Source: a virus. From it: a stretch of 20,683 bases of DNA. Position numbers and translations under genes: made by a program. The stretch lies in IMG/VR virus record IMGVR_UViG_3300030098_006063, positions 1 through 20,683 of that record; one strand, written 5' to 3'. Below the pieces are notes generated by a model. It saw only the letters and a list, made by a program, of their open reading frames with translations. It made no database searches and was not told where the DNA came from. Positions 1 through 20,015 of the stretch are shown one piece after another (positions within the stretch are counted from its first letter, which is position 1; the number at the start of each line of letters is the position of its first letter).

Positions 1-3000
1 CACTTTCCGCCTATAGCGGTAGTAAATGTAAAGTTCTCTCTACTATATTTAGAATACTTCCTAACAGCTTCAGGGTCTTCCTTTAATAACGACATAGCTT
101 TTCTAACCCCGCCTGCTAAGCCATTATAATGTCCTTTCAAAAATTCCCAAGACGATTGGTGGTATCGACTTCTAACGTCTGTTATAGATGGACTCTCTCC
201 AGTCTCCTTATAATACTCTCTTCTAACTTCTTTAGATAAACTGGTAGCGATTGCATCGTTTATAACCGCGAGAGGCATATCTATAGTATTTAACAATAGG
301 TTTGCGTTGTTACCTACTATACTTCTAATGATAGAAGAACTACTCATCAATTTCATGTTCCTACCCCACTCAACAACCTTATCCATCCGTCCGGGCTGTA
401 TATCAGAAAGACCCATCTCTCTTAACATCCCCTCTATACCTACGAGTCCATGGTTTGTCTCAACCTTTATTTTAGCGGCCTGAAGACTTCTACCTGCAAC
501 ATTTAAAACTGCCGCGGTAGCATTTAATGTTTTAGTTAGAGCAGCTAAATTTTCAAGACTGGGATTAGTCTTATATACGTCAATCATAGCGGAAGATAGC
601 AACTTATATCCATATACATCGGTCGCATCAACTTTTAGATTTGGATTGCGACTACCGTCATTTCTTATAATCTCCTCAGAATTAAGAATCCGCTCAACCT
701 GTTCCTGTAAATACTTACTATTTCCAGCGGCATCTCTTGTTTTATCATTAGTAACCCTTGTACGAACCCTCTCAGACATTACGGTTTCACCTATATGTCT
801 GTATATGTTTTTGAAGAACGGAATCTGCTCTTTTGGCACCGTATCTAAATTTATATTCGCCGCATATTTCTCAGCCGCCTTGCCTATAGGAGGCTTTGGC
901 GCACCGCCTTCTCCGGTTTCTAATTTCTCTACAATATTTATAGCATCTTTATGATTTCTTTTTAATACATCATAAGAGTTTATTATTCCTCGAGCTACAG
1001 CAACCTGCTCTTTTGTAGAAGGCTTTAAAATATCTTTTATATATTTACTAAATTTTGCCTTAGTTGGCTTCGAAGTAGTCTGCAAAAACTCATTGTAAGC
1101 CATTATATTAGTTATATGCTCTCTCTTCATATCAGCTACAACGACTTCTCCGTTTATCCAGTTCTTATAAGCCTTTTCAAACACAATGGCCATAGGGTCC
1201 GTCTTTGCGTGTAGCTCTTGTAACTTTTCAGCCACTTTAACATCTTTCTTTCCGAGCATATCTCTGGCCCATTGATTTAATTCAGGAGCAAAAGCTCTAT
1301 TCCTCCAAGGGGTGAAATTGTTTATGCTTTTAAATTGAAAAGGGTCAAACACGGCTACATTTTTAGCATTATTCTCCATCATAGTTATAGAGTCAAAGCC
1401 TAACTCTTTTATAGCTTGACCAAATCTTTCAATCATAGTCCAATTACCGCTGGACAGTCCTTCAACAACCTTATCTTTACTCCCGAAGGAGTCAACCATT
1501 TCCTCAAAAATTCTATTACCTTCACGACTTTGTCTTAATGCATTTATGTGAGATTTCTTATTAAACTTCCAAGGATTTGTTGAATAAACAAACAGTGGAT
1601 GAACATATATATCTTTAACGGGCTTTGATTTAGATGTAAATTTATCTTGAGCAACAAATTCAGCGGCCATACCAGCGCTCTTAGATGCAAAAGCCATAGG
1701 TTGATTATGGTGACTTGACGTTAATACTCGAGGCTGAATACCCTCTATACCTTTGATTGGAGAGGCGTGATAAAATACCTCCACATTTATACCGTCACGG
1801 CCAAAAGGCTCACTAAAAGCGCTTCTTTCCCAGAAAGCCCTAAATCTATTTGGAAGGTTTGATAAGCCATCTCTATTGATAACCATCTCAGATAATGTTG
1901 ACTCTGACCTAAACTTACCGTGAATAATAAGCTCTTCTTTTAAATTCTTAAAACCGTCAAGAGTTCTTGAGTCAAACTTTACAGTTCCATCACTTTTTAT
2001 CTCGGGATATATATTTTTAATGCCTTGAGACTGGTAGTCAATACCAGTAGACTCCTTTGGGAGTATACCTTTATCTTGCAGTTTTCTCTTATTTAAAGCA
2101 AATAAAGTAGGTATAGAGCCTTGAATTAAATTGCCAACCTCAATGGTATGTGGGACGGTGTATGTCTTATCTTTTCTCGGCTTGAACTCTAACACAGGAT
2201 GACCATCTTTATATACAACGCTAATGCCGTCTCCTATAACATTTTTATCACCCTTTTTTGCCCTTTTCATTACAAATTCAACTATACTGGATACGGGGTC
2301 AGTTTTAGCAAATAATTTTACACCATCGGGAGTGTTTTTCTTGAGAGTGGCAAGGTCAAATGGGCTTTTACCATCTTTGAATAATATGTCTTTAAATTTT
2401 GGCTTTTTAAGGTTTGGAAACGCCTTAAAAACATCAGGGTTGAGCGAACCACCTTTTGGCGTAGAGGGACTATAAAACAAAGAAGAACCTTCTTTAAACG
2501 TTTTTTTAGCATGTTTTCCTATAGCCTTCATAAAAATAGCATCTACTATACTCTTACCTAAAAATCTATGACCTTCTCTCCTATCTCCAGCAGAGTAAGC
2601 ATCAAATGCGTTTGCAGTATTATACATAAGGTTCTGACCCATACCATACATAAAATACATGCTACCAGCAAAAGCAACTGGCGCACCAGCGGACCCCATT
2701 AAACTCATTATTGCGACATTTGCAGGAGTAGAAACATCATCAATGGCCTCTGCTCCTCCAGCAAGAAGTTGCCACCCCTCTATAGTGGCGTCAAAAATTG
2801 TTTGCTTAAAGTCATCAGGGACAGTAGACGATGGTAGGCCTATACCTTTTTCTATAAAAGAGTCTATTATTACAGACCTAAATTCAGGAGAAAGACTTAA
2901 ACCCCAGTCAACGATAGAATTTGCGACTTTAGAAAGTGCTTTACCAGTAAGAGGCTTATGCCTCCACTCATCAAACTCTTCCTTTGTCCCTAAAGTACTA

Positions 3001-3659
3001 ACAAAACCTGTATTACTTAGTATTTTTCGAACCTCGTCTGAACTTTCTTGAAACATCTCTTTCTGCCACTTACTGAAAGATTCAGGGTCATCTTCCTTTA
3101 AAGAGTCAGACGCAATATTTTGCAATATAGGGGCAATAGAATTAGAATAAAGAGTAGACTCCATCTCTTTAAGTTTATTTGTAAAATCTTCAGCCGTGTC
3201 TGCATCAAAATCTTTTGAAAGTTCTTTTATATTTTCAGACGCAGAAAAAACATCCCTCACATCATCTTCGCTTGGGATTATAGTCTTAGCATCCTCGCTA
3301 ATAGTAGCTCTCTTTGTTTTAGAAAGCATAGGCATCCACTCATTTACAAGATTATCAACCTCTTTATCTATTAGAGACATTCCTATATCGGATTCTGGTG
3401 AGACCCTGCGTGCGACCTGTTCGTCAGTTATATCGTCTGCTGGAATCGGACCCTCTGTATCTAAGTCTATTTGGGTCTCTGGTACAGTCGCATCAACTGT
3501 GGTCGCATCTGGCTGTGCGACTTCTATCTCCGGTGCGACAATAGGCTCTTCATCTAACTGCTCTAAGGTTTTTAACCTTAAACTTTCATCAGTGCCTTTT
3601 AATACCTTCTTGGCATTTCTTTTTTTCTCTTCCGTCTCATTTAGCAAGTAATCTGTCAT
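1..3659 (-). CDS. Giant internal virion (ejection) protein with an ADP-ribosyltransferase-like domain; C-terminus missing
   Basis: The frame is open from the ATG at 3659 to the left edge: 1219 codons with no stop, so the 3' end lies outside. The start follows the upstream stop by 5 bases, with only a weak ribosome site (AGGCGA) overlapping that stop. Residues 1-110 are acidic and low-complexity, rich in D, E, T and P. Residues 313-340 are a long Ala/Gly/Met hydrophobic stretch, a possible membrane-inserting segment. Residues about 626-783 resemble the ADP-ribosyltransferase fold of phage polyvalent proteins. The C-terminal part (GRSLQAAK near 1053, SIVGNNANLLL at 1113-1123) resembles the helical regions of large phage polyvalent or internal virion proteins that carry a GRxLQ...RNxxGN signature. 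Size and position at the end of the structural operon suggest a protein packaged in the head and injected with DNA. I see no lytic transglycosylase motif. The large-virion-protein call is fairly secure; delivery into the host is inference. Confidence 0.72.
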   Translation of the reverse strand, partial: MTDYLLNETEEKKRNAKKVLKGTDESLRLKTLEQLDEEPIVAPEIEVAQPDATTVDATVPETQIDLDTEGPIPADDITDEQVARRVSPESDIGMSLIDKEVDNLVNEWMPMLSKTKRATISEDAKTIIPSEDDVRDVFSASENIKELSKDFDADTAEDFTNKLKEMESTLYSNSIAPILQNIASDSLKEDDPESFSKWQKEMFQESSDEVRKILSNTGFVSTLGTKEEFDEWRHKPLTGKALSKVANSIVDWGLSLSPEFRSVIIDSFIEKGIGLPSSTVPDDFKQTIFDATIEGWQLLAGGAEAIDDVSTPANVAIMSLMGSAGAPVAFAGSMYFMYGMGQNLMYNTANAFDAYSAGDRREGHRFLGKSIVDAIFMKAIGKHAKKTFKEGSSLFYSPSTPKGGSLNPDVFKAFPNLKKPKFKDILFKDGKSPFDLATLKKNTPDGVKLFAKTDPVSSIVEFVMKRAKKGDKNVIGDGISVVYKDGHPVLEFKPRKDKTYTVPHTIEVGNLIQGSIPTLFALNKRKLQDKGILPKESTGIDYQSQGIKNIYPEIKSDGTVKFDSRTLDGFKNLKEELIIHGKFRSESTLSEMVINRDGLSNLPNRFRAFWERSAFSEPFGRDGINVEVFYHASPIKGIEGIQPRVLTSSHHNQPMAFASKSAGMAAEFVAQDKFTSKSKPVKDIYVHPLFVYSTNPWKFNKKSHINALRQSREGNRIFEEMVDSFGSKDKVVEGLSSGNWTMIERFGQAIKELGFDSITMMENNAKNVAVFDPFQFKSINNFTPWRNRAFAPELNQWARDMLGKKDVKVAEKLQELHAKTDPMAIVFEKAYKNWINGEVVVADMKREHITNIMAYNEFLQTTSKPTKAKFSKYIKDILKPSTKEQVAVARGIINSYDVLKRNHKDAINIVEKLETGEGGAPKPPIGKAAEKYAANINLDTVPKEQIPFFKNIYRHIGETVMSERVRTRVTNDKTRDAAGNSKYLQEQVERILNSEEIIRNDGSRNPNLKVDATDVYGYKLLSSAMIDVYKTNPSLENLAALTKTLNATAAVLNVAGRSLQAAKIKVETNHGLVGIEGMLREMGLSDIQPGRMDKVVEWGRNMKLMSSSSIIRSIVGNNANLLLNTIDMPLAVINDAIATSLSKEVRREYYKETGESPSITDVRSRYHQSSWEFLKGHYNGLAGGVRKAMSLLKEDPEAVRKYSKYSRENFTFTTAIGGK
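1317..1784 (-). other. ADP-ribosyltransferase-like (ART-PolyVal type) domain within the giant protein
   Basis: Residues about 626-783 read VFYHASP (His631, codon 1767-1769), then PMAFASKSAGMAAEF (Phe657), then ELGFDSITMMENN (Glu762, codon 1374-1376), closing with VFDPFQFKS. The order matches the H-[YF]-E type ART fold: a His on the first strand, an aromatic-x-S/T strand before a helix rich in A, and a catalytic Glu in a G-[YF]-D-[GS]-[IV] strand followed by F-D-P-x-Q-[IF]-K-S. The last motif is characteristic of the phage polyvalent-protein ART family. I translated this region codon by codon. The second-motif Phe in place of Tyr and the absence of a search leave catalytic activity unproven. 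Confidence 0.65.
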
Positions 3660-3664
3660 TTCGC

Positions 3665-4777
3665 CTATTCGCTTATAGTTTCTACATCTATCTCATCGAA
3701 AGAAGAGTTTAGGTTTGGATACCTCTTTCTAAGTCTTTTTCTTATAGCCTCTAAAGAGTCTATCTTTTCTATTATATCCTCACCGAGAGAAGCTCTCCTA
3801 CTTTCTCTTAATTCCTGAACTGCTGGAGATTCTATATTGTAATCTATAGTGGTACGAGGTTTTGTTTTCATAACAGCACCATCCCCTTCAAATTCAGTAG
3901 ATGGTATATCTCTTTTTGTAAAATCTTCTCCGCTTTTTAATCCCATTTCTTCTAACTGACGAACTTCGCTCCTACCCTGAACATCTCTCCAAGTATACCC
4001 CGTTCCCTGCAACTCTTGAGAGCGGTTAAACTGAGCAACTAAAGAGTTATACTCTTTCTGGTCTTTGTCTGTCCAAATAGGTATAACATTAGCATCTCCT
4101 GTTAAAAGTTGAGATAACTTACCTAAACCCGTACCTGTTTGAATACTCTGCTTAGTCATTTTAAGCCCTGCTTGAACTTCCTCTTCTGTCATATCTTGTA
4201 TCTGCAAATATCTCTCAGCAAAACCTTTGCGCTTTTCCAACGAGTTTAGTTTTGCCTTTAAGTCAGCCTCAAAACCTTTACCTAAATCCTCCGCTTTCCC
4301 TTTCTGCTCTTCAATTTTATCTGTCACAGAAGTATATTGTAGTTGTGCGCGACCTTGCTCTTTATGAGATGAGTCTGGGCCAAATAGAGACTCTATTTCA
4401 CTGGTAGACGACTTAAAATTGTTCCACGTGGAATATTCCTCTGGAGGGTAAGCCTCCATCATAAATTGGTCTTTATATTCCTCTGGAGACAAAGGCTTCA
4501 TCGTAGGGTCTTCGTGTAAGATAGAACGGGTATTATGAATTTGATAAGAATGATAAAACTTGTCAGGATGATTATCTGGCAATGTTTGACTTGCTTCCTT
4601 GTGAAACGTTATCTTGTTTTTCAAGGTTTGCTCTCTTGTTGTTTTCTCGTCCTTAGCAAGTTGTCTCTCTCTCTTATCTAAAGCAAGACGTTTTTTTTCT
4701 TCTTCCCTTGCCTTCTTTTGCCTCGACTGAGCAACACTAACAGCAAACTTTGCAAGTATTGGAGCTAAAAAACTCAT
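3665..4777 (-). CDS. Coiled-coil probable internal virion protein
   Basis: 370 residues, ATG start, ribosome site AAGGG about 9 bases upstream. The N-terminus (residues 1-17, FLAPILAKFAVSVAQ) is hydrophobic/amphipathic and is followed at about 18-55 by a highly charged K/E/R helix, with a second helical stretch at about 155-200. No enzyme motif is visible. Position between the Q/A-rich internal protein and the giant ejection protein, the absence of a Sec-like signal and the heavy helix content fit a podovirus core or ejection protein of the T7 gp14-16 or P22 gp7/gp20/gp16 functional class, though I do not recognise a specific family. Codons for residues 115-120 (Y-S-T-W-N-N) contain a parS-like palindrome. 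The tag [SP]-P-E-E-Y occurs twice (97-101 and 111-115), both encoded by TATTCCTCTGGAG-type sequence. Confidence 0.55.
   Translation of the reverse strand: MSFLAPILAKFAVSVAQSRQKKAREEEKKRLALDKRERQLAKDEKTTREQTLKNKITFHKEASQTLPDNHPDKFYHSYQIHNTRSILHEDPTMKPLSPEEYKDQFMMEAYPPEEYSTWNNFKSSTSEIESLFGPDSSHKEQGRAQLQYTSVTDKIEEQKGKAEDLGKGFEADLKAKLNSLEKRKGFAERYLQIQDMTEEEVQAGLKMTKQSIQTGTGLGKLSQLLTGDANVIPIWTDKDQKEYNSLVAQFNRSQELQGTGYTWRDVQGRSEVRQLEEMGLKSGEDFTKRDIPSTEFEGDGAVMKTKPRTTIDYNIESPAVQELRESRRASLGEDIIEKIDSLEAIRKRLRKRYPNLNSSFDEIDVETISE
4420..4435. promoter_or_regulatory. parS-like ParB-binding site (15 of 16 match)
   Basis: The sequence TGTTCCACGTGGAATA contains the perfect 12-bp palindrome TTCCACGTGGAA centred on CACGTG. 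The bacterial chromosomal parS consensus is TGTTYCACGTGRAACA, and the variant TGTTCCACGTGGAACA differs at one position only. The site lies inside a virion gene, so it must also encode S-T-W-N. No parB-like gene is present in the window. Binding is not shown. Confidence 0.4.
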
Positions 4778-4809: not shown

Positions 4810-5940
4810 TTATCCTAAATCCATGTTACCTAAGAAATTCCCAGCGGCGCCGGCAACATTGCCCCACATTTGATATTTAGCCGCATCTGTTTGAGCTTGA
4901 GCCTGCCTTAATGCCGCCTGATAGTCTAATCCCATACCATACCTCTGAGTATCAGATTGAAGTTGAGCTATATTAAATTGGTTTTCTAAACCTGCCAAAG
5001 CAGTCTGTCTTTGACTTGCAATACTTTGAAGTTTAGTTGCAAGTTCATCAGCACTAAGACCCGCCGTTGTTCCAAATTTAGTTAAATCAGCCAAAGACTT
5101 CATTTTAAGCAAATTGGATTGCTGAGCAACATCTGACTGCATCCTTGCGATGCCTTCTGCGCCACCAGCAAGCATTTGAGAAGTTTCCTCTGGACTCATT
5201 CCTGTTTGTGATGCAAGCTGGGCTTGAAGCGCGCGTTGAGTCGCACCGGATTGCCTTGCGACCGCCTGCTGCGCCCTTAACGTTTCTTGCTCACTTATAT
5301 CTGTAGCCTCTTGCTTCCCCTGAGCTATCTCTCTTTGAACTTTTAGCCTAATATCATCGGCCTCTTTATCTTCTGGGGTTTGCGGAGGTGGAGGAGGCTC
5401 TAAATCAGTATCTTTTATCCAATCAGCATAAATGTTCTCTATTTCGGTCATATTTTTCCCGCCCCATTCAGGTCGACCTTTACTTTTAGTATATTCGTTG
5501 AATTTTGCTGAAAAATGAGGGTCTAATTGTGCAGAGTATCCATCAACGACAGACAACCTTCTATATCTCACGGTTCCATCAGGAAACTTATATTGAATTA
5601 AAGAACCGGAATTTGTATATTGCTCCCATGCGCTACCCCTTGTTTGAATTTGCGCACCTCTTGTAGCTATGCCCGTTAGAGGGTCTGTAACAAATTGAGT
5701 CCAATTACCGCGCGCAACATTGCCACCATGGTCATTTGGATGCCATTTATGCGCCCAAGCCCCTTCATCGTATTTATTCGTAGTCATTCCATAAAGAGAA
5801 TATGCACTTGTATCACCCTTATAGTGCGCCGTCAGAGCATCGTGACTCATGTGACTACCATCAACCATATAATCTTGATACCTCTCTGACGGTTTTGTGC
5901 TATTTTCGCTAAACCAATTATCTAACCATGTCTCTGCCAT
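4810..5940 (-). CDS. Probable internal virion protein: globular N-half, poly-Pro hinge, Q/A-rich helical C-half
   Basis: 376 residues with a strong ribosome site (AGGAG) overlapping the end of the previous gene, whose stop is 2 bases before this ATG. Residues 1-175 are aromatic and probably beta-containing, with a PDGTVRYRRLS strand pair at 120-130. EPPPPPQTPE (181-190) is a rigid hinge. Residues 195-355 are an almost uncharged Gln/Ala-rich amphipathic helix region, and the last 17 residues (GNVAGAAGNFLGN) form a small-residue, glycine-zipper-like hydrophobic end. That combination is typical of podovirus ejection proteins that leave the head and form or line a conduit through the envelope. 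Gene order after the nozzle agrees. No named family is recognised; role inferred from composition and context. Confidence 0.55.
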   Translation of the reverse strand: MAETWLDNWFSENSTKPSERYQDYMVDGSHMSHDALTAHYKGDTSAYSLYGMTTNKYDEGAWAHKWHPNDHGGNVARGNWTQFVTDPLTGIATRGAQIQTRGSAWEQYTNSGSLIQYKFPDGTVRYRRLSVVDGYSAQLDPHFSAKFNEYTKSKGRPEWGGKNMTEIENIYADWIKDTDLEPPPPPQTPEDKEADDIRLKVQREIAQGKQEATDISEQETLRAQQAVARQSGATQRALQAQLASQTGMSPEETSQMLAGGAEGIARMQSDVAQQSNLLKMKSLADLTKFGTTAGLSADELATKLQSIASQRQTALAGLENQFNIAQLQSDTQRYGMGLDYQAALRQAQAQTDAAKYQMWGNVAGAAGNFLGNMDLG

Positions 5941-5942
5941 AT

Positions 5943-6281
5943 TTAACTCCTATCTTTCTTAGAATTTTTCTCTAAATTTAATACTTTCTTCTCTAACATT
6001 CTATACTTACTATCTAAATCTTTTAACTCTCTGCTTGAATATGTAACGCAATACTTCCACTCTATACCGTTGTGTATAGCTAAAACATCCTTACCTTTAG
6101 AGTTTTTTCCAAATACAATATCACCTTTATTTCCATTTTTTTCAGAATCCATAGAGTTAGCATCATCTGTCTTCACTGCAGACAAAGGGTCTGCGTGAGA
6201 ATACAGCTCTTCTACTGACTCTTTTATATCAAAGGAAAATGGCTCAGGTCTTGAAAATGTATTTGAATTATTTTTTGTCAT
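5943..6281 (-). CDS. Small hypothetical virion-associated protein with C-terminal coiled coil
   Basis: 112 residues. The ATG lies inside the last codons of the nozzle C-half gene (14-base overlap) and has a good ribosome site (GAAGG). Residues 1-50 are polar and probably disordered. Residues 52-82 (GDIVFGKNSKGKDVLAIHNG and on to the WKY strand) look like the short beta hairpin 'GD-x-V-F...NG-x-W' often seen next to trimeric coiled coils in tail fibres. Residues 83-110 are a heptad-like K/E/L helix. It may be a small tail-associated or trimerising structural protein. I do not recognise the family. Confidence 0.5.
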   Translation of the reverse strand: MTKNNSNTFSRPEPFSFDIKESVEELYSHADPLSAVKTDDANSMDSEKNGNKGDIVFGKNSKGKDVLAIHNGIEWKYCVTYSSRELKDLDSKYRMLEKKVLNLEKNSKKDRS

Positions 6282-8670
6282 TATACCAACCTTCTATAGT
6301 CATATCCTCTATCTTAAAGGCATCATCTGTGCCTCCAGCATTATCGCTCTCAATTTTAAACGATATACTTTGACACTCTCTATTTATATTTATCTTTCTA
6401 TTTTTCAAAATACTGTTAACAGGAAGCTCTTTTTTACCATCTAAAACACCGTCGATATAAATATATATGGTCATACCCACGTTAGACAGGTAAGTAATCA
6501 TTAAACTTTTAACATACTTTGACATGTTTGGCTCATTAAATATGAACTCCTTTGTGTGCATAACTAACTTGGTATTATCTCGTATATTATCCCCTGCGGT
6601 GGAATAAGAATAAAGAGCCTGATTATAGTCGAGCTTTTTACATGAGACCTCGGTTATAGTACCGTCATAGTCAGAATCGGGTAAAAGATAGAGACCATAT
6701 GTCGAAGTTAACCCAGATACAAGGGTGAACTCATAAGTCATAGCAACCCCCGCATAAATATAACCCCTCTGAGCCTCTGTTGTTGGCGTACCACCAACAA
6801 ATACTGTACACCTCTTGCCAGCGGTTCCAGCTGCCGACGTTGTGACTGAAACCCTGTAATAAGCACCCGTATCAGTAGCTATAGCAGGAGTATCATCTCT
6901 TGTGTATACCGTAGAGCCAGCAGAGTGAGATAAATCCCCACCAGAAAGAGTCCAGTTTGTACCTACACCCCAACCAGCAAACGTCGTTGGATTAGAAGCG
7001 CTCTCAGAATCAGACAGAGTAGCTGTTTCTTTAATATAAAATAAATCATTGTCACCGCCATATAAAAGATTTGTTATAGAGGAGCCAGAGGTGTAGTTAA
7101 CTTTTACCCATCCACCGTTGCCTATATTAAATACCCACATGTGGTCCCCAAAAGCAGTTGTGTCTGGAATGAATACAATTTCATTGTTTTTAGCCGAGAA
7201 TCCCATAGTAGGGTTCCTGAAAGACGTATTTCTGTATGTTTCTTTGATAGGTAAAGTTATTTCTTCCTTAGATGGCAATACAAATATACCATTTCTATTA
7301 GCAACAACAACACCTACAGATGTTCTCACAACACACGAAGCCCAATCGGCGCCAGCTCCTAATATTCTTGCTTGCTCAGCGAATCCAGCCGCCGGATTTA
7401 AGATGTAAGAACTATTGTTTTTAATGCAATAAATAGAACCATTGAAAGATTTAATAGACACGATTCCGCCCGGCTCAGAAACTCCTATCATCTTGCTCCT
7501 AAAAAACCCAAACTCATCAACAGCCATAGGCGTTGACCACATTATTCTATTTCTCTCTCTAAACGTTTGACCTTTATCGTCTAATGTATCTATATTTCCT
7601 ATAACCGCAACACCGTTTATTATATCGGAAGCCTTATAGCGTATATCCCTAACCCTGTGTCCCGCAGTTCTTCCTGTTTTTGACTGATAGGTAGGCCCTC
7701 TCGTTCCATCGAAAGGCATATACATTGTTGTAATCGCATCAGTTCTTTTGAAACAAGATTTAATTCTATAACTATGATGCGTTTTGGGATTACTATTCCA
7801 CTCAGTTGCACCGCCTCCAACATCAGGCTCATAAGAAGGCTCCATTCCGGGAAACGGAGTTGATATAGAATTATATCCTGCATGATTCATTAGCCAACTA
7901 TCACCTATAACTATACAGTCTTTGACAACAGATACATTTCCGGGTATAGCCTTGTAAGATGAATCTATGACGAGGCTTTTACCTGAGTCTGCAGTATATT
8001 TTATCCTATAAACGCCATAATAGTCATCAGGGTAAGAGTCTTTACTCGTAGATAAGGTCTTAACTATATTTATATAACTACCATACCCATTGTGATGGCC
8101 TAACTCTTGCCAATTCCCAAATAAGTTACTCTGAGCTGTTGTCATTGTTATTTTATTATTAGCAGGGTCAAATGTCAGGTTATCGAGGTCTGCATGTTGA
8201 AATTTTGTAAACGCACCAAAACCAATCTCCGTATTTGTTCCGGGTTCCGTGCCATCCATGATAGCAGGATGTCCACATGTTATCAATGCTCTTAGCGCAC
8301 TAAAACTTGAAATATTAAGAAATTGGTCTTTTTGATTGTAAGTCGCACCGGGAGTAGCACCGGGAGCTATTATAGTAATAGTGTCAGAGCAAAAATAATT
8401 ATCAACATCAGACCTGCTTGTTGGAAGCGGTATAATAGACCAAGGCATTAAAGAGTCAGCATCGTCGTGAATCTCGAGCCAAGGATATGTCTCTGTACCA
8501 GTTAAGGCTACATTATATGTATTAGAGCGATGAAAAGGACATGACATCCAAGCGCCTAAATCTGTAGTATAAGGACTTTCAGGAGAGCCGGGATTTACCC
8601 CTAACTCATCGCTGTCCGGATGAGTGACAATACCAAGTCCTGTTAATATCTGTTTGTCAGAAAAACTCAC
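6268..8670 (-). CDS. Tail nozzle/stabilisation protein, C-terminal part: beta-propeller with inserted carbohydrate-binding-like domain
   Basis: 800 residues. The start is GTG: its G is the last base of the preceding TAG stop (TAGTG), and the frame has a TAA stop three codons upstream, so no earlier start fits. No good ribosome site is seen (AAAGG 15 bases away). Residues about 350-545 carry repeating beta-propeller blades: RNRIMWSTP (373-381), SIKSFNGSIYCIKNNSSYIL (405-424), GVVVANRNGIFVL (453-465), FSAKNNEIVF (491-500) and MWVFNIGNGGWVKV (511-524). The pattern is shared with podovirus nozzle proteins of the T7 gp12 / P22 gp10 functional class. Residues about 553-680 look like an inserted jelly-roll of carbohydrate-binding (CBM4/9-like) type, after which the C-terminal domain (TKEFIFNEP at 706-714, FKIEDMTIEGW at 785-795) resumes. 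The upstream gene appears to supply the missing N-terminal half. Confidence 0.65.
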   Translation of the reverse strand: MSFSDKQILTGLGIVTHPDSDELGVNPGSPESPYTTDLGAWMSCPFHRSNTYNVALTGTETYPWLEIHDDADSLMPWSIIPLPTSRSDVDNYFCSDTITIIAPGATPGATYNQKDQFLNISSFSALRALITCGHPAIMDGTEPGTNTEIGFGAFTKFQHADLDNLTFDPANNKITMTTAQSNLFGNWQELGHHNGYGSYINIVKTLSTSKDSYPDDYYGVYRIKYTADSGKSLVIDSSYKAIPGNVSVVKDCIVIGDSWLMNHAGYNSISTPFPGMEPSYEPDVGGGATEWNSNPKTHHSYRIKSCFKRTDAITTMYMPFDGTRGPTYQSKTGRTAGHRVRDIRYKASDIINGVAVIGNIDTLDDKGQTFRERNRIMWSTPMAVDEFGFFRSKMIGVSEPGGIVSIKSFNGSIYCIKNNSSYILNPAAGFAEQARILGAGADWASCVVRTSVGVVVANRNGIFVLPSKEEITLPIKETYRNTSFRNPTMGFSAKNNEIVFIPDTTAFGDHMWVFNIGNGGWVKVNYTSGSSITNLLYGGDNDLFYIKETATLSDSESASNPTTFAGWGVGTNWTLSGGDLSHSAGSTVYTRDDTPAIATDTGAYYRVSVTTSAAGTAGKRCTVFVGGTPTTEAQRGYIYAGVAMTYEFTLVSGLTSTYGLYLLPDSDYDGTITEVSCKKLDYNQALYSYSTAGDNIRDNTKLVMHTKEFIFNEPNMSKYVKSLMITYLSNVGMTIYIYIDGVLDGKKELPVNSILKNRKININRECQSISFKIESDNAGGTDDAFKIEDMTIEGWYNDKK

Positions 8671-11207
8671 TATATATTAGACCAGCCTTTCTCAATATCA
8701 AAGTAGTTCACTAAATAATAATCAACCTCGTTTTTAGGCTTCCAGTATAGGTTGAAACCAGTAATTCTTTTATTTAAGCCATCAACATTTACGCCATCAA
8801 CACTTGAACCCACAGTGGTGTCTCCAAAATATTTTGCACCCATACTTGTTGTAGCCTCATCTCCTGCGGTAACACCGCTGGCTATATAAGCAGTACAATA
8901 GTCGTTTATTGGGTTCTGTTGGCTAATAGCAACATTACTACTAACTACAGGCTCATTATTGATTGCGGCAACAATATCTTCAAAAGCAATAGCGTTAGAA
9001 CTCTTCTTCGTGCATACGACATTTAATCGTAGATAATGAGCCTCACTACTATTCACAACCTGTTTGCTCACAACGATTGTCGATGTACCTGAGCCTGTGG
9101 CAGAATAAGTTATATTCAACACTAACCTCATATTAGCAAGAGAGCCTAAAGATTTGGCCGCTTCTACGTAAAATTTGGTACCGCTCTGCACGTAATCTAT
9201 TCTCGAGCTTGTGTTGTTACCAGTGCATAAAACTACATTTATTGCCCTTGCACTTTGGTTTTGGTCTACGTGATATATTTCTAAACCATCATCACCGCTA
9301 CCACTTCCAGTTGGAAGTAAATCTATAGGAGTAGTGCCGTCAACACCTCTGTGAACTCCATAAACACAATACGCATTAGAACTTGAATGGTCTGCGATAC
9401 TTGTTATACACATTACTTCCGACCCTGCTTTTATATAATCTCCAACAGAAAGAGTTTGATGCGCTCCAGCGGAGCCATCAGTTAAAGAAGATATATGTAT
9501 TAAAGTGTTCTCCCTTGAATCAACAGGGCTATTCGTACTCGCATATCCAACAACTTTCGCAACAAGTTCATCTTGGCTTGCATCTAAGTATGTTACAGGA
9601 GCCTCTAATACCTCTGGAGGTGTTATAGTAGTAAATCCTGAAACGCCTATAATTCCATTATCATTTCTTGATAACTCACTTTCAGAAGAACCATCATAAA
9701 CAAAGGTGGCAGCCCAAACATCATTCATATCAAATGTGTCTTTCATCATAGCATCAGGATATAAAACATGTTCTTGGAAAGTTCCGGCTCCCAAATCTTG
9801 ACTTGTTGAAAACTCTTTAGGGTCATACACATATAAACCTATCTCTCCAGCATTTTTTACTTTATATGTAGGGTCACCCCATCCGTCCATCTTAATTAAT
9901 GTGGGAGCAGGGATAGACTGATTCATCATTTCCCAAGAATTTTTAGTATAGGCGCTTATCGGTCGAGAAGCAATACTGTTTGGCGCCCTTCCATAACTAA
10001 GAGAGTCGCCATATCTCGAACCTTTTATAAAACCAAACCATTGATTTTTATTTTCTAAATTATTAAAATTACCATCCGCTATCCTTATTGCTCCTGCTAT
10101 ATTGTAAGTATTTATATATGGAGTACTATTTATATCCCAATTTGCAATCTTTACGTCCGATACAGGTGCAGTAGTTTTTGTTAATACACCCCCAAACCTG
10201 CCTCCAAACCCTGTGCTTTTTACAACATCAGAGGTGTTTAAAAGAATCATATCAGTCAATACGTGTTGAACAATAGCGCTGTAGTTATTATTTAAAGTTG
10301 CGGGAGACGAAGCACTTCCAACAGTATATGTTATCGTATCTCCTGCTGTGAGGCCAAAGCCAACAAAATCTCCACCAAACCATAAAATCATATCATTAGT
10401 GTCCGCGAGACCTAATGTCGCCTTAACATCAGTTGCAGAGAGAAAAGAAAACCCACTTGAAGGTGAGGGAGAATTTATGGATATAGACTCAGACTGTGCG
10501 CTCCCAAGGCCAACCATCATTAAGGCCTTTTCTCCAGAAACTTTAGAGGTTGTGGTATTTGTATAATTAGAAGTTATATCAGAAGCTATATCACACGGCA
10601 TAACCCCGTAAACGTTCGGGGAGTAAGATTGAGCATTTCTTATTTCATATCTATTACTTGTTAAGGAAAATGCAGCAGTTTTTGGAGTACCAGCATTTTC
10701 GAAATGAGGTAAATATATAACAATAGAAGTAGTAGATATAACCTCTAAAACCTTATAGAAACCAACTATAGTTTCTTCCTCTGCGACAGTCGCACCAGTC
10801 GCATTAAATATCTCACAATAATCCCCAACAGAAAAAGATATAGCAGAAGCCATAACAAGTGTCGCATCTCTTCCTAAAGAGCAATTTTTATTTCTTTGAC
10901 CAGAGTCAGAGGCTGAATAACTTGCAATAGACGTTATAACAGCGCTTATACTTAACGACTCTCCAAAACCATATTCTGTATGAATTACGCTTAAACCATT
11001 GCCAGTAAATGTACCTATCGAATATAAACTATCACCAGTTGATGCAGATATTTGTTTATCCGACTGAGGCCTCTTTACTACTCCGGGTAGACGTAGTTCT
11101 GCGTTAGATATTTCTTGATATTGAGTATCACTTAAGTCTCTTGTTGAAAAATAGTCAACCTGACCTCCTGAAAAATTAGATATTGACTTTTTAAAAGGAG
11201 TTGCCAT
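8670..11207 (-). CDS. Tail nozzle/stabilisation protein, N-terminal part
   Basis: 845 residues. The ATG overlaps the previous stop (TAATG), with AAGGA 7 bases upstream. The N-terminus (SISNFSGGQVDYFSTRD at 8-24, then LRLPGVVKRP at 38-47) matches the opening of podovirus nozzle proteins: a short strand ending in GG, then an 'N-x-x-L-x-x-G-x-x-KRP' strand. Later beta domains include VGDYIKAGSEVMCITSI (588-604) followed by VHRGVDGTTP (618-627), a module common in phage tail proteins, and an 'EDIVAAINNEP' module (743-753). The protein ends at 815-838 with GFNLYWKP...YYLVNYFDIEKG, which resembles the fibronectin-like strand pair that normally precedes the propeller in single-chain homologues. It has no propeller of its own; that lies in the next ORF, so the two are probably one functional unit. 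Confidence 0.65.
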   Translation of the reverse strand: MATPFKKSISNFSGGQVDYFSTRDLSDTQYQEISNAELRLPGVVKRPQSDKQISASTGDSLYSIGTFTGNGLSVIHTEYGFGESLSISAVITSIASYSASDSGQRNKNCSLGRDATLVMASAISFSVGDYCEIFNATGATVAEEETIVGFYKVLEVISTTSIVIYLPHFENAGTPKTAAFSLTSNRYEIRNAQSYSPNVYGVMPCDIASDITSNYTNTTTSKVSGEKALMMVGLGSAQSESISINSPSPSSGFSFLSATDVKATLGLADTNDMILWFGGDFVGFGLTAGDTITYTVGSASSPATLNNNYSAIVQHVLTDMILLNTSDVVKSTGFGGRFGGVLTKTTAPVSDVKIANWDINSTPYINTYNIAGAIRIADGNFNNLENKNQWFGFIKGSRYGDSLSYGRAPNSIASRPISAYTKNSWEMMNQSIPAPTLIKMDGWGDPTYKVKNAGEIGLYVYDPKEFSTSQDLGAGTFQEHVLYPDAMMKDTFDMNDVWAATFVYDGSSESELSRNDNGIIGVSGFTTITPPEVLEAPVTYLDASQDELVAKVVGYASTNSPVDSRENTLIHISSLTDGSAGAHQTLSVGDYIKAGSEVMCITSIADHSSSNAYCVYGVHRGVDGTTPIDLLPTGSGSGDDGLEIYHVDQNQSARAINVVLCTGNNTSSRIDYVQSGTKFYVEAAKSLGSLANMRLVLNITYSATGSGTSTIVVSKQVVNSSEAHYLRLNVVCTKKSSNAIAFEDIVAAINNEPVVSSNVAISQQNPINDYCTAYIASGVTAGDEATTSMGAKYFGDTTVGSSVDGVNVDGLNKRITGFNLYWKPKNEVDYYLVNYFDIEKGWSNI

Positions 11208-12870: not shown

Positions 12871-13893
12871 TTATGTTAACGATGTAGTATAGTTGATAAC
12901 TTCTTGTACTGCGAAGTCAGTAGAATTAAACGCAGTTTTAGCCATCTCATAAATGATAGAGGCTGAAATGCTTAGTTTATTTCCACGGTCAACTGTTTCT
13001 TCGTGCCATTGATGGTCGCCACCAAAAGCAACAACACCAGCTTGAGCGCCTAACAATAAGTTTCTGTTAGCATTAACGCTGTTAACAGTAACTTTTTGTA
13101 TTAAGTCATGCTCGTGAATAACAACGCCATCCCACATACCTAACATTCCTGTGAATAAAGGATTGTCGATACCTCTTGGCATAGCATATTGTTGAGCTGA
13201 CTGCCATTCAGAGTTATTCTTCAACTCATGCGCAGTCTCAGGGTGAACAAGTAAAAGATAATAATCTTTACCGCTCACTCTGATAGGTCTAAACTTAGGG
13301 TTAACTAATTTAGCCCTTGCCACAGCTCTACTAATTAAAGCAGGTGTGATAACGTCAGCAGACGCTAAAGCACTCGCTGGAGTAGTAGTTTTAATAGTGC
13401 CATTGTCGTTCCAGATTGTATAATCTAAATCTGAAAACGCATAAGTAGCGCTATTTACACCGTTAGTTAAAGTACCAGTAGCACCTGATAGAGTATCAAT
13501 TAAATCTTTTTCCATAGTTTCTGCAAACCATACTTTTAAAGATTCAAGAGCTTCAACTCTAAAGTCAATAAGTACTTTTTTGTCAGCCATTTTACCTTTA
13601 CTCAAAACACCTTGACGTAATTGGTCAAGAGTAACTGTTTGAGTATAAGTGTCAATAGCTACTTCGTTACCGGCTAACGTGTTATCACCAGTAACTCCGC
13701 TACCATCGATTTTCATTTTCAAACCAAAAGTAACGTCTTTTCCTCGCGCACCGGCGAGGTCGGTTAATACGTGAATTGCTGCATTACTACCACCAAAGAA
13801 ACGAGACATATATGTATCGGCTTTAGCCTGAGTAAACAACTCTTTACGCCATCTGGAGACTTCCAGACTCGAGTTCCATAATACTTCACTCAT
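12871..13893 (-). CDS. Major capsid protein, N4-gp56 / DUF4043 family
   Basis: 340 residues, normal for this HK97-fold family. Diagnostic stretches are WRKELFTQAKADTYMSRFFG (15-34), LVHPETAHELKNNSEWQSAQ (215-234), PRGIDNPLFTGMLGMWDGVV (239-258) with IHEHD next, and VAFGGDHQWHEETVDRGNKL (288-307). The protein would assemble the icosahedral shell on the scaffold encoded two genes upstream. Its ribosome site (AAGGAGAATAAAAAATG) is among the strongest in the window and is identical to that of the preceding gene. It is followed by the hairpin at 12826-12854. Its N-terminus (MSEVLWNSSLEVS) is closely matched by a small protein at 17985-18143. Confidence 0.88.
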   Translation of the reverse strand: MSEVLWNSSLEVSRWRKELFTQAKADTYMSRFFGGSNAAIHVLTDLAGARGKDVTFGLKMKIDGSGVTGDNTLAGNEVAIDTYTQTVTLDQLRQGVLSKGKMADKKVLIDFRVEALESLKVWFAETMEKDLIDTLSGATGTLTNGVNSATYAFSDLDYTIWNDNGTIKTTTPASALASADVITPALISRAVARAKLVNPKFRPIRVSGKDYYLLLVHPETAHELKNNSEWQSAQQYAMPRGIDNPLFTGMLGMWDGVVIHEHDLIQKVTVNSVNANRNLLLGAQAGVVAFGGDHQWHEETVDRGNKLSISASIIYEMAKTAFNSTDFAVQEVINYTTSLT

Positions 13894-15438: not shown

Positions 15439-17325
15439 CTATCCTTGTGCCTCTTCACCTTCACCGGCAATGGCTTGCATTGCAGAAAGTTGTTCTTGTT
15501 CTACAAGAGTAGATAAGATTTCTTCCTTACCGGGAAAGTCAGACATGTCTATAATAGCCTTCACTATTGTCATCACAGCCATCGGAGGTAGAGCTTGTGC
15601 GTACTGCAATAACTCTTTCGCCGACTGCGTTGATGCAATTCTTGCTGTTGGTGATGACTCACCATCATCTATGATTATATCATAGTTAATATCATAAAAT
15701 TTTGTTACAAGCTCCATAGTCGCTTGGTCTAAATATTCTGGCTTAGCTCTATGGACTATACCTATAGCTCTTTTAATTTTTTGAGGGTCATAATATTGTT
15801 GCACATTAGAAAGAACTTGACTTAAAACCATTTGCTTAGCAGTATTTAAATTATCAAAAAGTTCTTGCAAAGATGTCAAACCTTGTTGTATACGTGTTTG
15901 AGCCGCAACTCCACTTTCCCTTGAGTTTGTCGGAATACCTATCAGGCTATCATTAATACCACTAATTTCTTTAGCATCATTCATAGATGATTGCTCTAAC
16001 CACTGGTAATGCCCTAAAATACCGATATAATTGGCCGCTGAAGGCTGTATCTTATCTTTTAGCTGTCCACGTACGCCAACCCAAGAACCCGGCGTAGAAA
16101 GGCCTTTTACCATCTCAGGGTCAACTGCACCCATTTGAAAGAATCCGCCACCTTTAGGTGCGCGATTCAAAATATCGGTAAACTGACTATGCCTTTTATT
16201 CTTTTCATCTTGTGGGTCCATAAGGTTTCTAATAATACCAAAGTTCTCAACCTGCTCACCAGTATCCTCTAAATAGGCATATACAGGTACTAATGGAAAC
16301 TGACCATGCTTGTGTGGCATTAGTTCTTCTTTTTGTATCATAAAGTCACCAGAAAATGTATCCATATATATCTTAGATACAGGCATCTTAAATGCGGTAA
16401 ACCTATCCAGCATCTCAGTTTTTTTGGCAATCTTATTTAGTTTTTTAGCCTGAAGCATTGCATCTTTTTTATTCTTAGCTGGGAATGAAATTCCCTCTGT
16501 GTTCACTACAAACCACTCATCTTCTGTCCTTCTTGTATACAGCTCTACAATCTTAGCTCTTCTTTTTTCAGTATCAACAAAAGATGTGAAGTCATATACA
16601 TTGTTTGTCGTAGGATAGTCGTTTTCGTACTCATTATGCATAGCAGGTCTTCTGCTGTCAGCCGAAAAGTTTAAAGCGTTAGCTATTTCTTTGTAGCTCA
16701 TTTTCCCAAATATATCAGGATATGTCTTCTGTAACTGAGGAATAGATAGCCATTTTTGTCTTGATAAAAATGTAGCATCAGACATATCTTTTTCTTTTGA
16801 GTCAGGGTCTTTATATACATTAAAAACATTTTCGTTTCTAACTCTATTAGACATTACTACTTCACCAGCTTTATGTTGTAACCCTACATCAATCCAAGCA
16901 CGGCCACATTGTATTGCGGTTTTAAAAGCTCTTGAAAAAACCTTCTGAAGTTGTTTATTGTGGTCTTCATATTTAAGCATAGCAGTTGCAACCATAGCAA
17001 GTTTGTCATCCTCTGCTCCAACGGGGATGGCTCTAAATCCACTTCTTATTTGTTGCTCTAAACCTGTAACTGTATTTACTTTGGAGAAAATGAAATTGAA
17101 AGTTAAAGGGGGCCTCCCTTCAGATTCCAACTGCTGTCTTTCTAACTCGCTCCATTGACCTGTACCTGTATAGTAACCCATAGCTTTCTGGAAGTTATCC
17201 ATATCAACTCTGTTACCATACTCTAAGTGAGAGTATATCTCTAAAACCTCAGCCAGTCTCTGCTCTTCAGAGCTACCGGTTGATGATTTATAATTATCGT
17301 TTAAGCTCGCTGCTTCAGATGGCAT
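15439..17325 (-). CDS. Portal protein, P22-type
   Basis: 628 residues, close to the usual length for P22-like portals. The dodecameric portal is the DNA channel and docking point for the terminase. Recognisable parts are GQWSELERQQLESEGRPPL (56-74) followed by TFNFIFSKVNTVTGLEQQIR (75-94), then AFKTAIQCGRAWIDVGL (133-149), GIIRNLMDPQDEKNKRHSQ (363-381) and SRESGVAAQTRIQQGL (468-483), all in family order. The ATG overlaps the preceding stop (TAATG), with GAGG about 8 bases upstream. The C-terminus (about 600-628) is a Q/E-rich tail. The gene lies directly before the scaffold and after four small genes that separate it from terminase. Confidence 0.85.
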   Translation of the reverse strand: MPSEAASLNDNYKSSTGSSEEQRLAEVLEIYSHLEYGNRVDMDNFQKAMGYYTGTGQWSELERQQLESEGRPPLTFNFIFSKVNTVTGLEQQIRSGFRAIPVGAEDDKLAMVATAMLKYEDHNKQLQKVFSRAFKTAIQCGRAWIDVGLQHKAGEVVMSNRVRNENVFNVYKDPDSKEKDMSDATFLSRQKWLSIPQLQKTYPDIFGKMSYKEIANALNFSADSRRPAMHNEYENDYPTTNNVYDFTSFVDTEKRRAKIVELYTRRTEDEWFVVNTEGISFPAKNKKDAMLQAKKLNKIAKKTEMLDRFTAFKMPVSKIYMDTFSGDFMIQKEELMPHKHGQFPLVPVYAYLEDTGEQVENFGIIRNLMDPQDEKNKRHSQFTDILNRAPKGGGFFQMGAVDPEMVKGLSTPGSWVGVRGQLKDKIQPSAANYIGILGHYQWLEQSSMNDAKEISGINDSLIGIPTNSRESGVAAQTRIQQGLTSLQELFDNLNTAKQMVLSQVLSNVQQYYDPQKIKRAIGIVHRAKPEYLDQATMELVTKFYDINYDIIIDDGESSPTARIASTQSAKELLQYAQALPPMAVMTIVKAIIDMSDFPGKEEILSTLVEQEQLSAMQAIAGEGEEAQG

Positions 17326-17552: not shown

Positions 17553-17984
17553 TTAATCGCATCCAACTCCGGGATACTTAACTGTACCGCCTTTTCTATA
17601 TGTGTTGGATGCATGTTTTACTTTCTTACGTTTTCCGGTTTCAGGGTTCTTAGCTATATTGCCACCTTTTCGAGCTAAACCATGCTGTCTGACCGGTTTT
17701 AGCTTTTTAGTGGCCTCTTTGTCGTTATTTATTTCTTCGAGCTTCTTGCGGTGTTTTTTAGCAGATTCTTTATTTACTATAAACTCACCGCCCTCAACCT
17801 CGATAGCTTCTTTAGAACCTTTGACTTTGGCTTTTACACCACCCTCTTCATGAGATGGACCGCCAATTATACCGCCACGCTGATACTTTTTAGTACCCTC
17901 GTTATCATATAATTGGTCGGTCTTTAAAGTTCTAATGTCGCCACCGTAACGATACTCTTTAGCCTTCTTTATTATTCTTTTCAT
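17553..17984 (-). CDS. Lys/Gly-rich hypothetical protein with GP-x-H-x-x-GG ... EVEGGE module
   Basis: 143 residues, strongly basic. Residues 38-82 carry GIIGGPSHEEGGVKA, then AIEVEGGEFIVNKES, then KKLEEIN. I have the impression that this G-P-x-H...G-G...E-V-E-G-G-E-[FY]-[IV]-[IV] module recurs in phage structural and tail-associated proteins; its biochemical role is unknown to me. Around it are four copies of a Y-x-x-G-G-x-[IV] motif: YRYGGDI (11-17), YQRGGII (34-40), ARKGGNI (104-110), YRKGGTV (129-135). The ATG directly abuts the previous stop (TAAATG). The C-terminus ends in CD. It is probably a small nucleic-acid-contacting or virion protein, but function is unassigned. Confidence 0.6.
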   Translation of the reverse strand: MKRIIKKAKEYRYGGDIRTLKTDQLYDNEGTKKYQRGGIIGGPSHEEGGVKAKVKGSKEAIEVEGGEFIVNKESAKKHRKKLEEINNDKEATKKLKPVRQHGLARKGGNIAKNPETGKRKKVKHASNTYRKGGTVKYPGVGCD

Positions 17985-18623: not shown

Positions 18624-20015
18624 TTATACCAACTTCCAGCTATCTTTGTTATTTTTATTTGACAGCCATTCAGGCGGTATGTTGCGAGGAAGTCTCATGC
18701 CAGACTCCTCAAAGTGGTTAATCGCGTAACGAAGACAATCCATTGCATGGTCTCCCACTTTACGCGGTTCTTCTTTACTATTCAAGGATACCTTGAAATC
18801 TTCCCATCTATAATCTGTAATCTCTTCGATAAAAGGGTCTAACGCCGGTTTATTAAATACAAACAAACGTGGCTTATTCAAAACGGGGTCAACCTTTATG
18901 TACTGAGCCACTCTATCGATACCTGCCTGCTTATCGTTATCAGCCCTCTCGAAGAATATACCATAATCTTCGTACTGAGCTGCGATGCTTACATCGTTAG
19001 ACATTCCACCGCGAACATGGAATATAGATGGGTCTGCTAACCATCGAGTTATATGGTCTTGTCTTACTTTTAACCATATTTGCTCAGCGTGATAATCTAT
19101 CCACTGATTAGCTTCATAATGACAATCATATATATAAATATCTCCATCACCATCTGTGGCGAAAAATAATACTGCCGTAGGATTTCTGTGACCGTGGTCC
19201 AGTACAACATATCTGTTCCACCATCTCGGTATTTCGAATGAATCAATGATATGCGTCTGCTCATCGAACTCACTCCATACAAGACCCTCGTAATTATCCC
19301 AAGAGCCGTAGACGTAACGGCGAACCCATCGCTCTGGTTGGGACAGACGGTCAACTATATAGTCCCAAGGTAAATACGGATTATCGCAATTAAGAGGAGT
19401 GACTTCTTTTTGGGATTTTGGTGGAGGCGTGTCTTCGCGCCAAATTTGACCTTGAACGCACTTATAGTCTTTTCTCCCGCCCTTATTAATCCAACGTTTC
19501 CATACCCAACTATGACCGTTTGGGTTCGCTGTTGCGAAACTTCTACGTGATGCGTTTTTACGTCTCATCTGACCTATGCACGCAATCCACACATTTTCTG
19601 TTATTTCTTCTATCTGGTCTACCATCACTGCACCAAGGTTCATTGATTTAACCTTTTGCATAGCCTCTCTGCTCTCATCCAATTGCATATAAAATATTTT
19701 AGAATTATTCAAAAAAGTTATACTTTGCTCTTGTTTATCGTGACGCTTAATCAGCTTAGGGTCTACAAGGTCGAAAAATGATACTAGAGTCGATTTTTTT
19801 AAAGCCCCTAAGGTCTTCCTACCTAATAGCACAACATTGTTTTTAAAGGACATTGCTTCTACCATTGCTTGAATCATCAACCAATCGGTTTTTCCCCAGC
19901 CGAGTGAGCCGGCAGCTAATACATGCTTTTCCCTTGAATCCATTAACATCTTTTGAGATTCTAAGGCTTGTGACGGATTTCCGTCTGCATCTTTAAAGCC
20001 TATGTATATGTCCAT
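18624..20015 (-). CDS. terL: Terminase large subunit (packaging ATPase/nuclease)
   Basis: 463 residues, normal for a podovirus. It powers DNA translocation through the portal and cuts concatemers. ATPase domain: Walker A GSLGWGKT (36-43), Walker B AVMVDQIEEI (129-138; Asp133, with acidic residues at 136-137), coupling motif ATANPNGHSW (161-170). RNase H-like nuclease domain: YVVLDHGHRNPTA (269-281, Asp273), an acidic strand end near Asp297, WLADPS (325-330, Asp328) and VGDHAMDCLRYAI (420-432, Asp422/Asp426). ATG start, AAGGG upstream. It follows the small subunit after a 138-base gap with unusual structure. Which end type it makes (cos, pac or terminal repeats) cannot be told from this. Confidence 0.92.
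   Translation of the reverse strand: MDIYIGFKDADGNPSQALESQKMLMDSREKHVLAAGSLGWGKTDWLMIQAMVEAMSFKNNVVLLGRKTLGALKKSTLVSFFDLVDPKLIKRHDKQEQSITFLNNSKIFYMQLDESREAMQKVKSMNLGAVMVDQIEEITENVWIACIGQMRRKNASRRSFATANPNGHSWVWKRWINKGGRKDYKCVQGQIWREDTPPPKSQKEVTPLNCDNPYLPWDYIVDRLSQPERWVRRYVYGSWDNYEGLVWSEFDEQTHIIDSFEIPRWWNRYVVLDHGHRNPTAVLFFATDGDGDIYIYDCHYEANQWIDYHAEQIWLKVRQDHITRWLADPSIFHVRGGMSNDVSIAAQYEDYGIFFERADNDKQAGIDRVAQYIKVDPVLNKPRLFVFNKPALDPFIEEITDYRWEDFKVSLNSKEEPRKVGDHAMDCLRYAINHFEESGMRLPRNIPPEWLSNKNNKDSWKLV

What the first reader, a model, noticed from the sequence alone, without database searches (positions are those of the whole stretch)
1317..1784. ADP-ribosyltransferase-like domain inside a giant probable ejection protein
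Residues 626-783 show FYHASP (His631), PMAFASKSAGMAAEF (Phe657), GFDSITMMENN (Glu762) and FDPFQFKS in the order of the polyvalent-protein ART family. Known precedent: phage T4 packages the ART Alt and injects it to modify host RNA polymerase. Here the domain is embedded in a multi-domain virion protein with a hydrophobic segment, so a toxin or host-takeover enzyme may be delivered as part of the ejection machinery itself.
Basis: partly seen in the sequence, partly recalled or inferred. Interest (0 to 1): 0.72.

Follow-up and report, generated by a model that had tools for sequence, protein, structure and literature searches.

The report
Enzyme domain in phage ejection protein
A short-tailed phage carries, inside a very large protein probably injected with its DNA, a divergent copy of an already described enzyme domain (ART-PolyVal) that likely tags host proteins with ADP-ribose, so this is a new member of a known kind.

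Summary
Residues 628-783 of the giant ORF (window 3-3659, minus; at least 1219 aa, cut by the contig end) match Pfam PF18760 ART-PolyVal (E 8e-6 for residues 600-800; 27.1 bits, just under the curated 31.2). A family model built here without the window scores the region 24.6 bits; 2000 shuffles reach at most 7.1. AlphaFold2 with 56 viral homologues gives pLDDT 77, pTM 0.71; the best solved match is AcrIF11, an anti-CRISPR ADP-ribosyltransferase, followed by MbcT, RES toxins and tankyrases. The site is H631-F657-D756, as in the published H-Y-D of this family and the H-F-H-D of AcrIF11. The phage is a P22-like podovirus. The giant sits last among the virion genes held, and its C-terminal part is shared with four related phages whose giants lack the ART, so the domain looks like a swappable module. 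Such ARTs in giant phage "polyvalent proteins" were described in 2017 and are common (at least 414 stretches in IMG/VR). New member of a known kind. Activity, target and injection are inferred, not shown.

The parts
3..3659 (-). Giant ORF, at least 1219 aa, C-terminus cut by the contig end; probable ejection (internal virion) protein of the polyvalent kind
   Evidence: ORF; record starts here; relatives run to 2116-2485 aa
1311..1778 (-). ART-PolyVal domain, residues 628-783
   Evidence: PF18760, shuffles, AlphaFold2, Foldseek
1767..1769 (-). H631, strand-1 histidine of the FYHASP motif
   Evidence: aligned to invariant H; predicted strand 1
1689..1691 (-). F657, strand-2 aromatic (Y in 46, W in 6, F in 5 of 58 homologues)
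   Evidence: predicted strand 2
1392..1394 (-). D756, strand-5 aspartate of the H-Y/F-D site
   Evidence: D in 58 of 58, 16 of 18 annotated members; H-Y-D in PMC5512222
1374..1376 (-).
2655..2717 (-). Residues 315-335, most hydrophobic stretch of the giant (mean Kyte-Doolittle 1.32); relatives have similar stretches
3..962 (-). Residues about 900-1219, C-terminal part shared with giants of four related podoviruses
3665..4777 (-). 370-aa gene next to the giant, probable second ejection protein (by position only)
4810..5940 (-). 376-aa gene, probable third ejection protein (by position); genes of similar size and motif at the same place in related contigs
12871..13893 (-). Major capsid protein
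   Evidence: PF13252 2e-48; phrog_334
15439..17325 (-). P22-like portal protein
   Evidence: PF16510 8e-91
18624..20015 (-). Terminase large subunit

Best explanation
The window holds the head and tail genes of an uncultivated P22-like podovirus. Its last large gene encodes a giant polyvalent ejection protein whose residues about 608-785 form an ADP-ribosyltransferase domain of the ART-PolyVal family (H631, F657, D756). Proposed working: the giant is packed in the virion, leaves with the other ejection proteins when DNA is delivered, and the ART domain then binds NAD+ and puts ADP-ribose on one or a few host proteins, either to favour phage expression (as T4 Alt does) or to disable a defence (as AcrIF11 does with Cas8f). 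Shown here: family relationship by profile and predicted fold, site residues, virion-gene neighbourhood, modularity. Inferred: packaging, injection, catalysis, target.
For: PF18760 match and shuffle control. Alignment with annotated members and 58 viral homologues keeps Y630, H631, the strand-2 aromatic and D756. Predicted strand order, with H in strand 1, F in strand 2 and D just before the fifth strand; best PDB match AcrIF11 6kyf E 6.6e-4, then MbcT, RES toxins, tankyrases; 60 BFVD matches at E up to 1e-3, many named ART-PolyVal. AcrIF11Pae1, an active ART, has key residues H-F-H-D (PMC12421852). P22-like portal, capsid and SU10-type adaptors upstream. The giant of podovirus ctEw122, with a similar gene order, carries the ART at 629-758. 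The C-terminal part of a relative's giant weakly matches an annotated internal virion protein. Four related giants lack the ART.
Against: The Pfam score is below the curated cut-off. The family's YHG[TS] is YHAS here, and the G after D756 is S (S also occurs in accepted members). No virion proteomics, no assay. The C-terminus is missing. The link to internal virion proteins is weak (E 6e-3), or to an unnamed protein (2e-10). No model coordinates were available to measure the pocket.
Confidence: 0.75

Rival explanations
1. The domain keeps the ART fold but is inactive or decayed; it serves as a structural or binding part of the ejection protein.
For: YHAS in place of YHGT/S, S757 for G, N767 where 35 of 58 have E; score below the curated cut-off. 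Four related giants do without it.
Against: H631 and D756, the residues under strongest constraint, are kept; F at strand 2 occurs in 5 of 58 homologues and in the active AcrIF11Pae1.
Confidence: 0.15
2. It is an anti-defence enzyme: an injected ART that disables a host immune protein before phage genes are expressed, in the manner of AcrIF11. (A sub-case of the best explanation.)
For: Best solved structural match is AcrIF11; same H-F-D residues; delivery with the DNA would suit pre-emptive action.
Against: Fold similarity does not give the target; 17% identity over the alignment; MbcT and tankyrases match too. No neighbouring anti-defence gene was identified.
Confidence: 0.15
3. The match is chance: a compositional hit in a fast-evolving giant protein.
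For: Sub-threshold Pfam score; no BLAST match in 50,697 phage records; single-sequence AlphaFold2 was poor.
Against: 24.6 bits against 7.1 at most in 2000 shuffles; motifs in order over nearly the whole profile; model with homologues pLDDT 76.7 and ART matches in PDB.
Confidence: 0.02
4. The giant is made in the infected cell and stays there as an effector; it is not packaged or injected.
For: No virion data exist; some phage ARTs act in the infected cell without being packaged (T4 ModA and ModB, PMC9503650).
Against: It ends the virion gene block, same strand, next to likely ejection proteins; related polyvalent proteins are described as virion-embedded.
Confidence: 0.1

Closest known systems
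ART-PolyVal (Pfam PF18760; Tox-ART-HYD2 clade), in polyvalent proteins
   Same: Profile match over positions 8-137 of 140; H, aromatic, D site; embedded in a giant protein encoded among virion genes
   Different: Sub-threshold, divergent (12-21% identity to members), YHAS and S757, F for Y at strand 2
Giant of podovirus ctEw122 (MW202640, UOF79766) and relatives L044-L065
   Same: Podovirus, gene order capsid - tail - giant, ART at residues 629-758 of 2792
   Different: No detectable homology outside the ART; carries LPD22 at the N-terminus, not found in the window giant
Roseovarius Plymouth podovirus 1 vRNAP (CBX87992)
   Same: ART-PolyVal inside a giant, presumably ejected protein of a podovirus
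   Different: N4-like virion RNA polymerase; no such family matched in the window giant
AcrIF11 (PDB 6kyf)
   Same: Fold; key residues H-F-(H)-D
   Different: Small stand-alone anti-CRISPR protein; not part of a virion protein
Phage T4 Alt
   Same: Works like it, if injected: virion-delivered ADP-ribosyltransferase
   Different: Different clade (R-S-E site, PMC5512222); separate head-packaged protein
P22 gp7/gp16/gp20 and T7 gp14/gp15/gp16 ejection proteins
   Same: Position after tail genes; weak match of a relative's C-terminal part to a Fussvirus internal virion protein
   Different: Much larger and multi-domain; homology to P22 or T7 proteins not detected

Membership tests
ART-PolyVal (PF18760) | Profile match over the curated cut-off (31.2 bits) | tested here: not met
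   27.1 bits, E 8e-6; so it is called a divergent relative, supported by the other tests
ART-PolyVal (PF18760) | ART fold | tested here: met
   AlphaFold2 model pLDDT 76.7 with homologues; Foldseek ART matches; prediction only
ART-PolyVal (PF18760) | H in strand 1, Y in strand 2, D in strand 5 | tested here: met
   H631, F657 (Y to F, as in 5 of 58), D756
ART-PolyVal (PF18760) | ADP-ribosyltransferase activity | not testable with these tools
   needs an assay
Polyvalent protein | Large multidomain protein of a phage, near virion genes | tested here: met
   at least 1219 aa; last gene of the virion block held
Polyvalent protein | Two or more recognised effector or LPD domains | tested here: inconclusive
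   only the ART is recognised in the 1219 aa held; C-terminus missing
T4 Alt / R-S-E ART clade | R-S-E active site | tested here: not met
   H, F and D at the three positions instead
Podoviral ejection protein | Present in the virion and ejected with DNA | not testable with these tools
   position and weak homology only

The most novel reading that the evidence does not exclude
A P22-like ejection protein with an exchangeable middle module delivers an AcrIF11-like ART that inactivates a host defence protein before any phage gene is expressed; related phages carry other modules in the same carrier against other defences.
Probability: 0.12. Interest if true: 0.6.

Novelty: new member of a known kind. 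Interest (0 to 1): 0.3.

Why it matters
It adds a divergent ART-PolyVal on a P22-like podoviral ejection protein and corrects the catalytic residue to test (D756, not E762). If active, it supports the view that ejection proteins double as carriers of exchangeable host-takeover enzymes; but that idea and many examples are already published.

Tried and rejected
Single-sequence AlphaFold2 (pLDDT 35) was uninformative. tblastn of the giant and of the ART in phage records found nothing useful. Scans of IMG/VR with the giant, with the ART alone and with the C-terminal part reached no other ART-bearing relative of this giant; genome contigs gave none. No PHROG, NCBIfam or defence-system match to the giant; a weak Cas6d match of the 370-aa neighbour (E 0.003, 15 bits) was taken as chance. 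A PDB sequence search with the family profile gave only marginal matches to other ARTs. hhalign of the window against A1 was discarded because A1 contains the window. Conservation of Y630 and H631 among the 58 IMG/VR homologues is biased by the YHGT search pattern; D756 is not in that pattern.

Full report
Setting. The window is bases 1-20683 of a 21.5-kb IMG/VR record. The large genes are on the minus strand, in the order terminase large subunit, P22-like portal, a 330-aa probable scaffold, a 155-aa head protein, major capsid protein, SU10-type adaptors, two large stabilization-type proteins, three smaller genes, and a giant ORF that runs off the contig. This is the head and tail block of a P22-like podovirus. 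No tRNA or Rfam match.

The observation. PF18760 ART-PolyVal matches residues 628-783 over nearly its whole length at E 8e-6, 27.1 bits, below the curated 31.2. A model made from 98 family members without the window gives 24.6 bits, against 7.1 at most for 2000 shuffles, so chance is excluded in practice.

The fold. Alone, the sequence folds badly. With 56 viral homologues (alignment A6) AlphaFold2 gives pLDDT 76.7 and pTM 0.71, with the strand order of an ART. Foldseek against the PDB gives AcrIF11 (6kyf, E 6.6e-4), MbcT, RES toxins and tankyrases; against viral predictions 60 matches at E up to 1e-3, many named ART-PolyVal. The homologues in the alignment could pull the model towards the family fold, so this is support and not independent proof.

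The site. Iyer and others (PMC5512222) give H (strand 1), Y (strand 2), D (strand 5) for this family. In the window these are H631, F657 and D756. Among 58 viral homologues D756 is D in all, F657 is Y 46, W 6, F 5, H 1, and E762 is variable; in 18 annotated members D is kept in 16. AcrIF11Pae1 uses H-F-H-D (PMC12421852), so F is compatible with activity.

Modularity. Related phages were found by their capsid protein and by the C-terminal part of the giant. Giants of 2443, 2485, 2116 and about 2075 aa share a C-terminal part with residues about 860-1219 of the window giant but none has PF18760. In two of them the middle holds a different domain that also occurs in other ART-bearing giants. So the ART looks like an accessory module on a conserved carrier.

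How common. Podovirus ctEw122 has it at residues 629-758 of its 2792-aa giant, after capsid and tail genes. Giant phage proteins with such ARTs, thought to be injected, were described in 2017 and surveyed in 2022.

Working. The most likely mechanism is delivery with the DNA and ADP-ribosylation of a host protein. Delivery rests on gene position and on a weak match of a relative's C-terminal part to an internal virion protein of a Pelagibacter phage (E 6e-3). Target and activity are unknown. Verdict: a real, divergent ART-PolyVal; a new member of a known kind.

Noticed in passing
window 6268-11207 (-): The stabilization-type protein is split in two ORFs (845 and 800 aa) that overlap by one base (TAGTG). 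Relatives G003, G004 and G007 have one ORF of about 1360 aa; the closest relative G001 is also split (1367 and 729 aa).
   Followed up: partly
L009:1059-8390 (-), residues about 970-1180; L029 counterpart: A domain with the motif DLFRAIHDFTHHGKSGNGFGPKGEF in the giants of two relatives recurs in other ART-bearing giants (L075, L076, L094, L098, L122); the L029 copy matches phrog_3170, of unknown function, weakly.
   Followed up: partly
window 17553-17984 (-): 143-aa basic, glycine-rich protein with GGPSHEEGGVKAKVKG and EGGEFIVNKESAKKHRKKLEEIN motifs; no Pfam match. From memory such motifs occur in phages of Bacteroidota, a possible host hint.
   Followed up: no
L020:1486-1980 (phage cr130_1): The reading frame of the annotated gene with the ART contains a TAG codon, consistent with TAG recoding in this crAss-like phage.
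   Followed up: no
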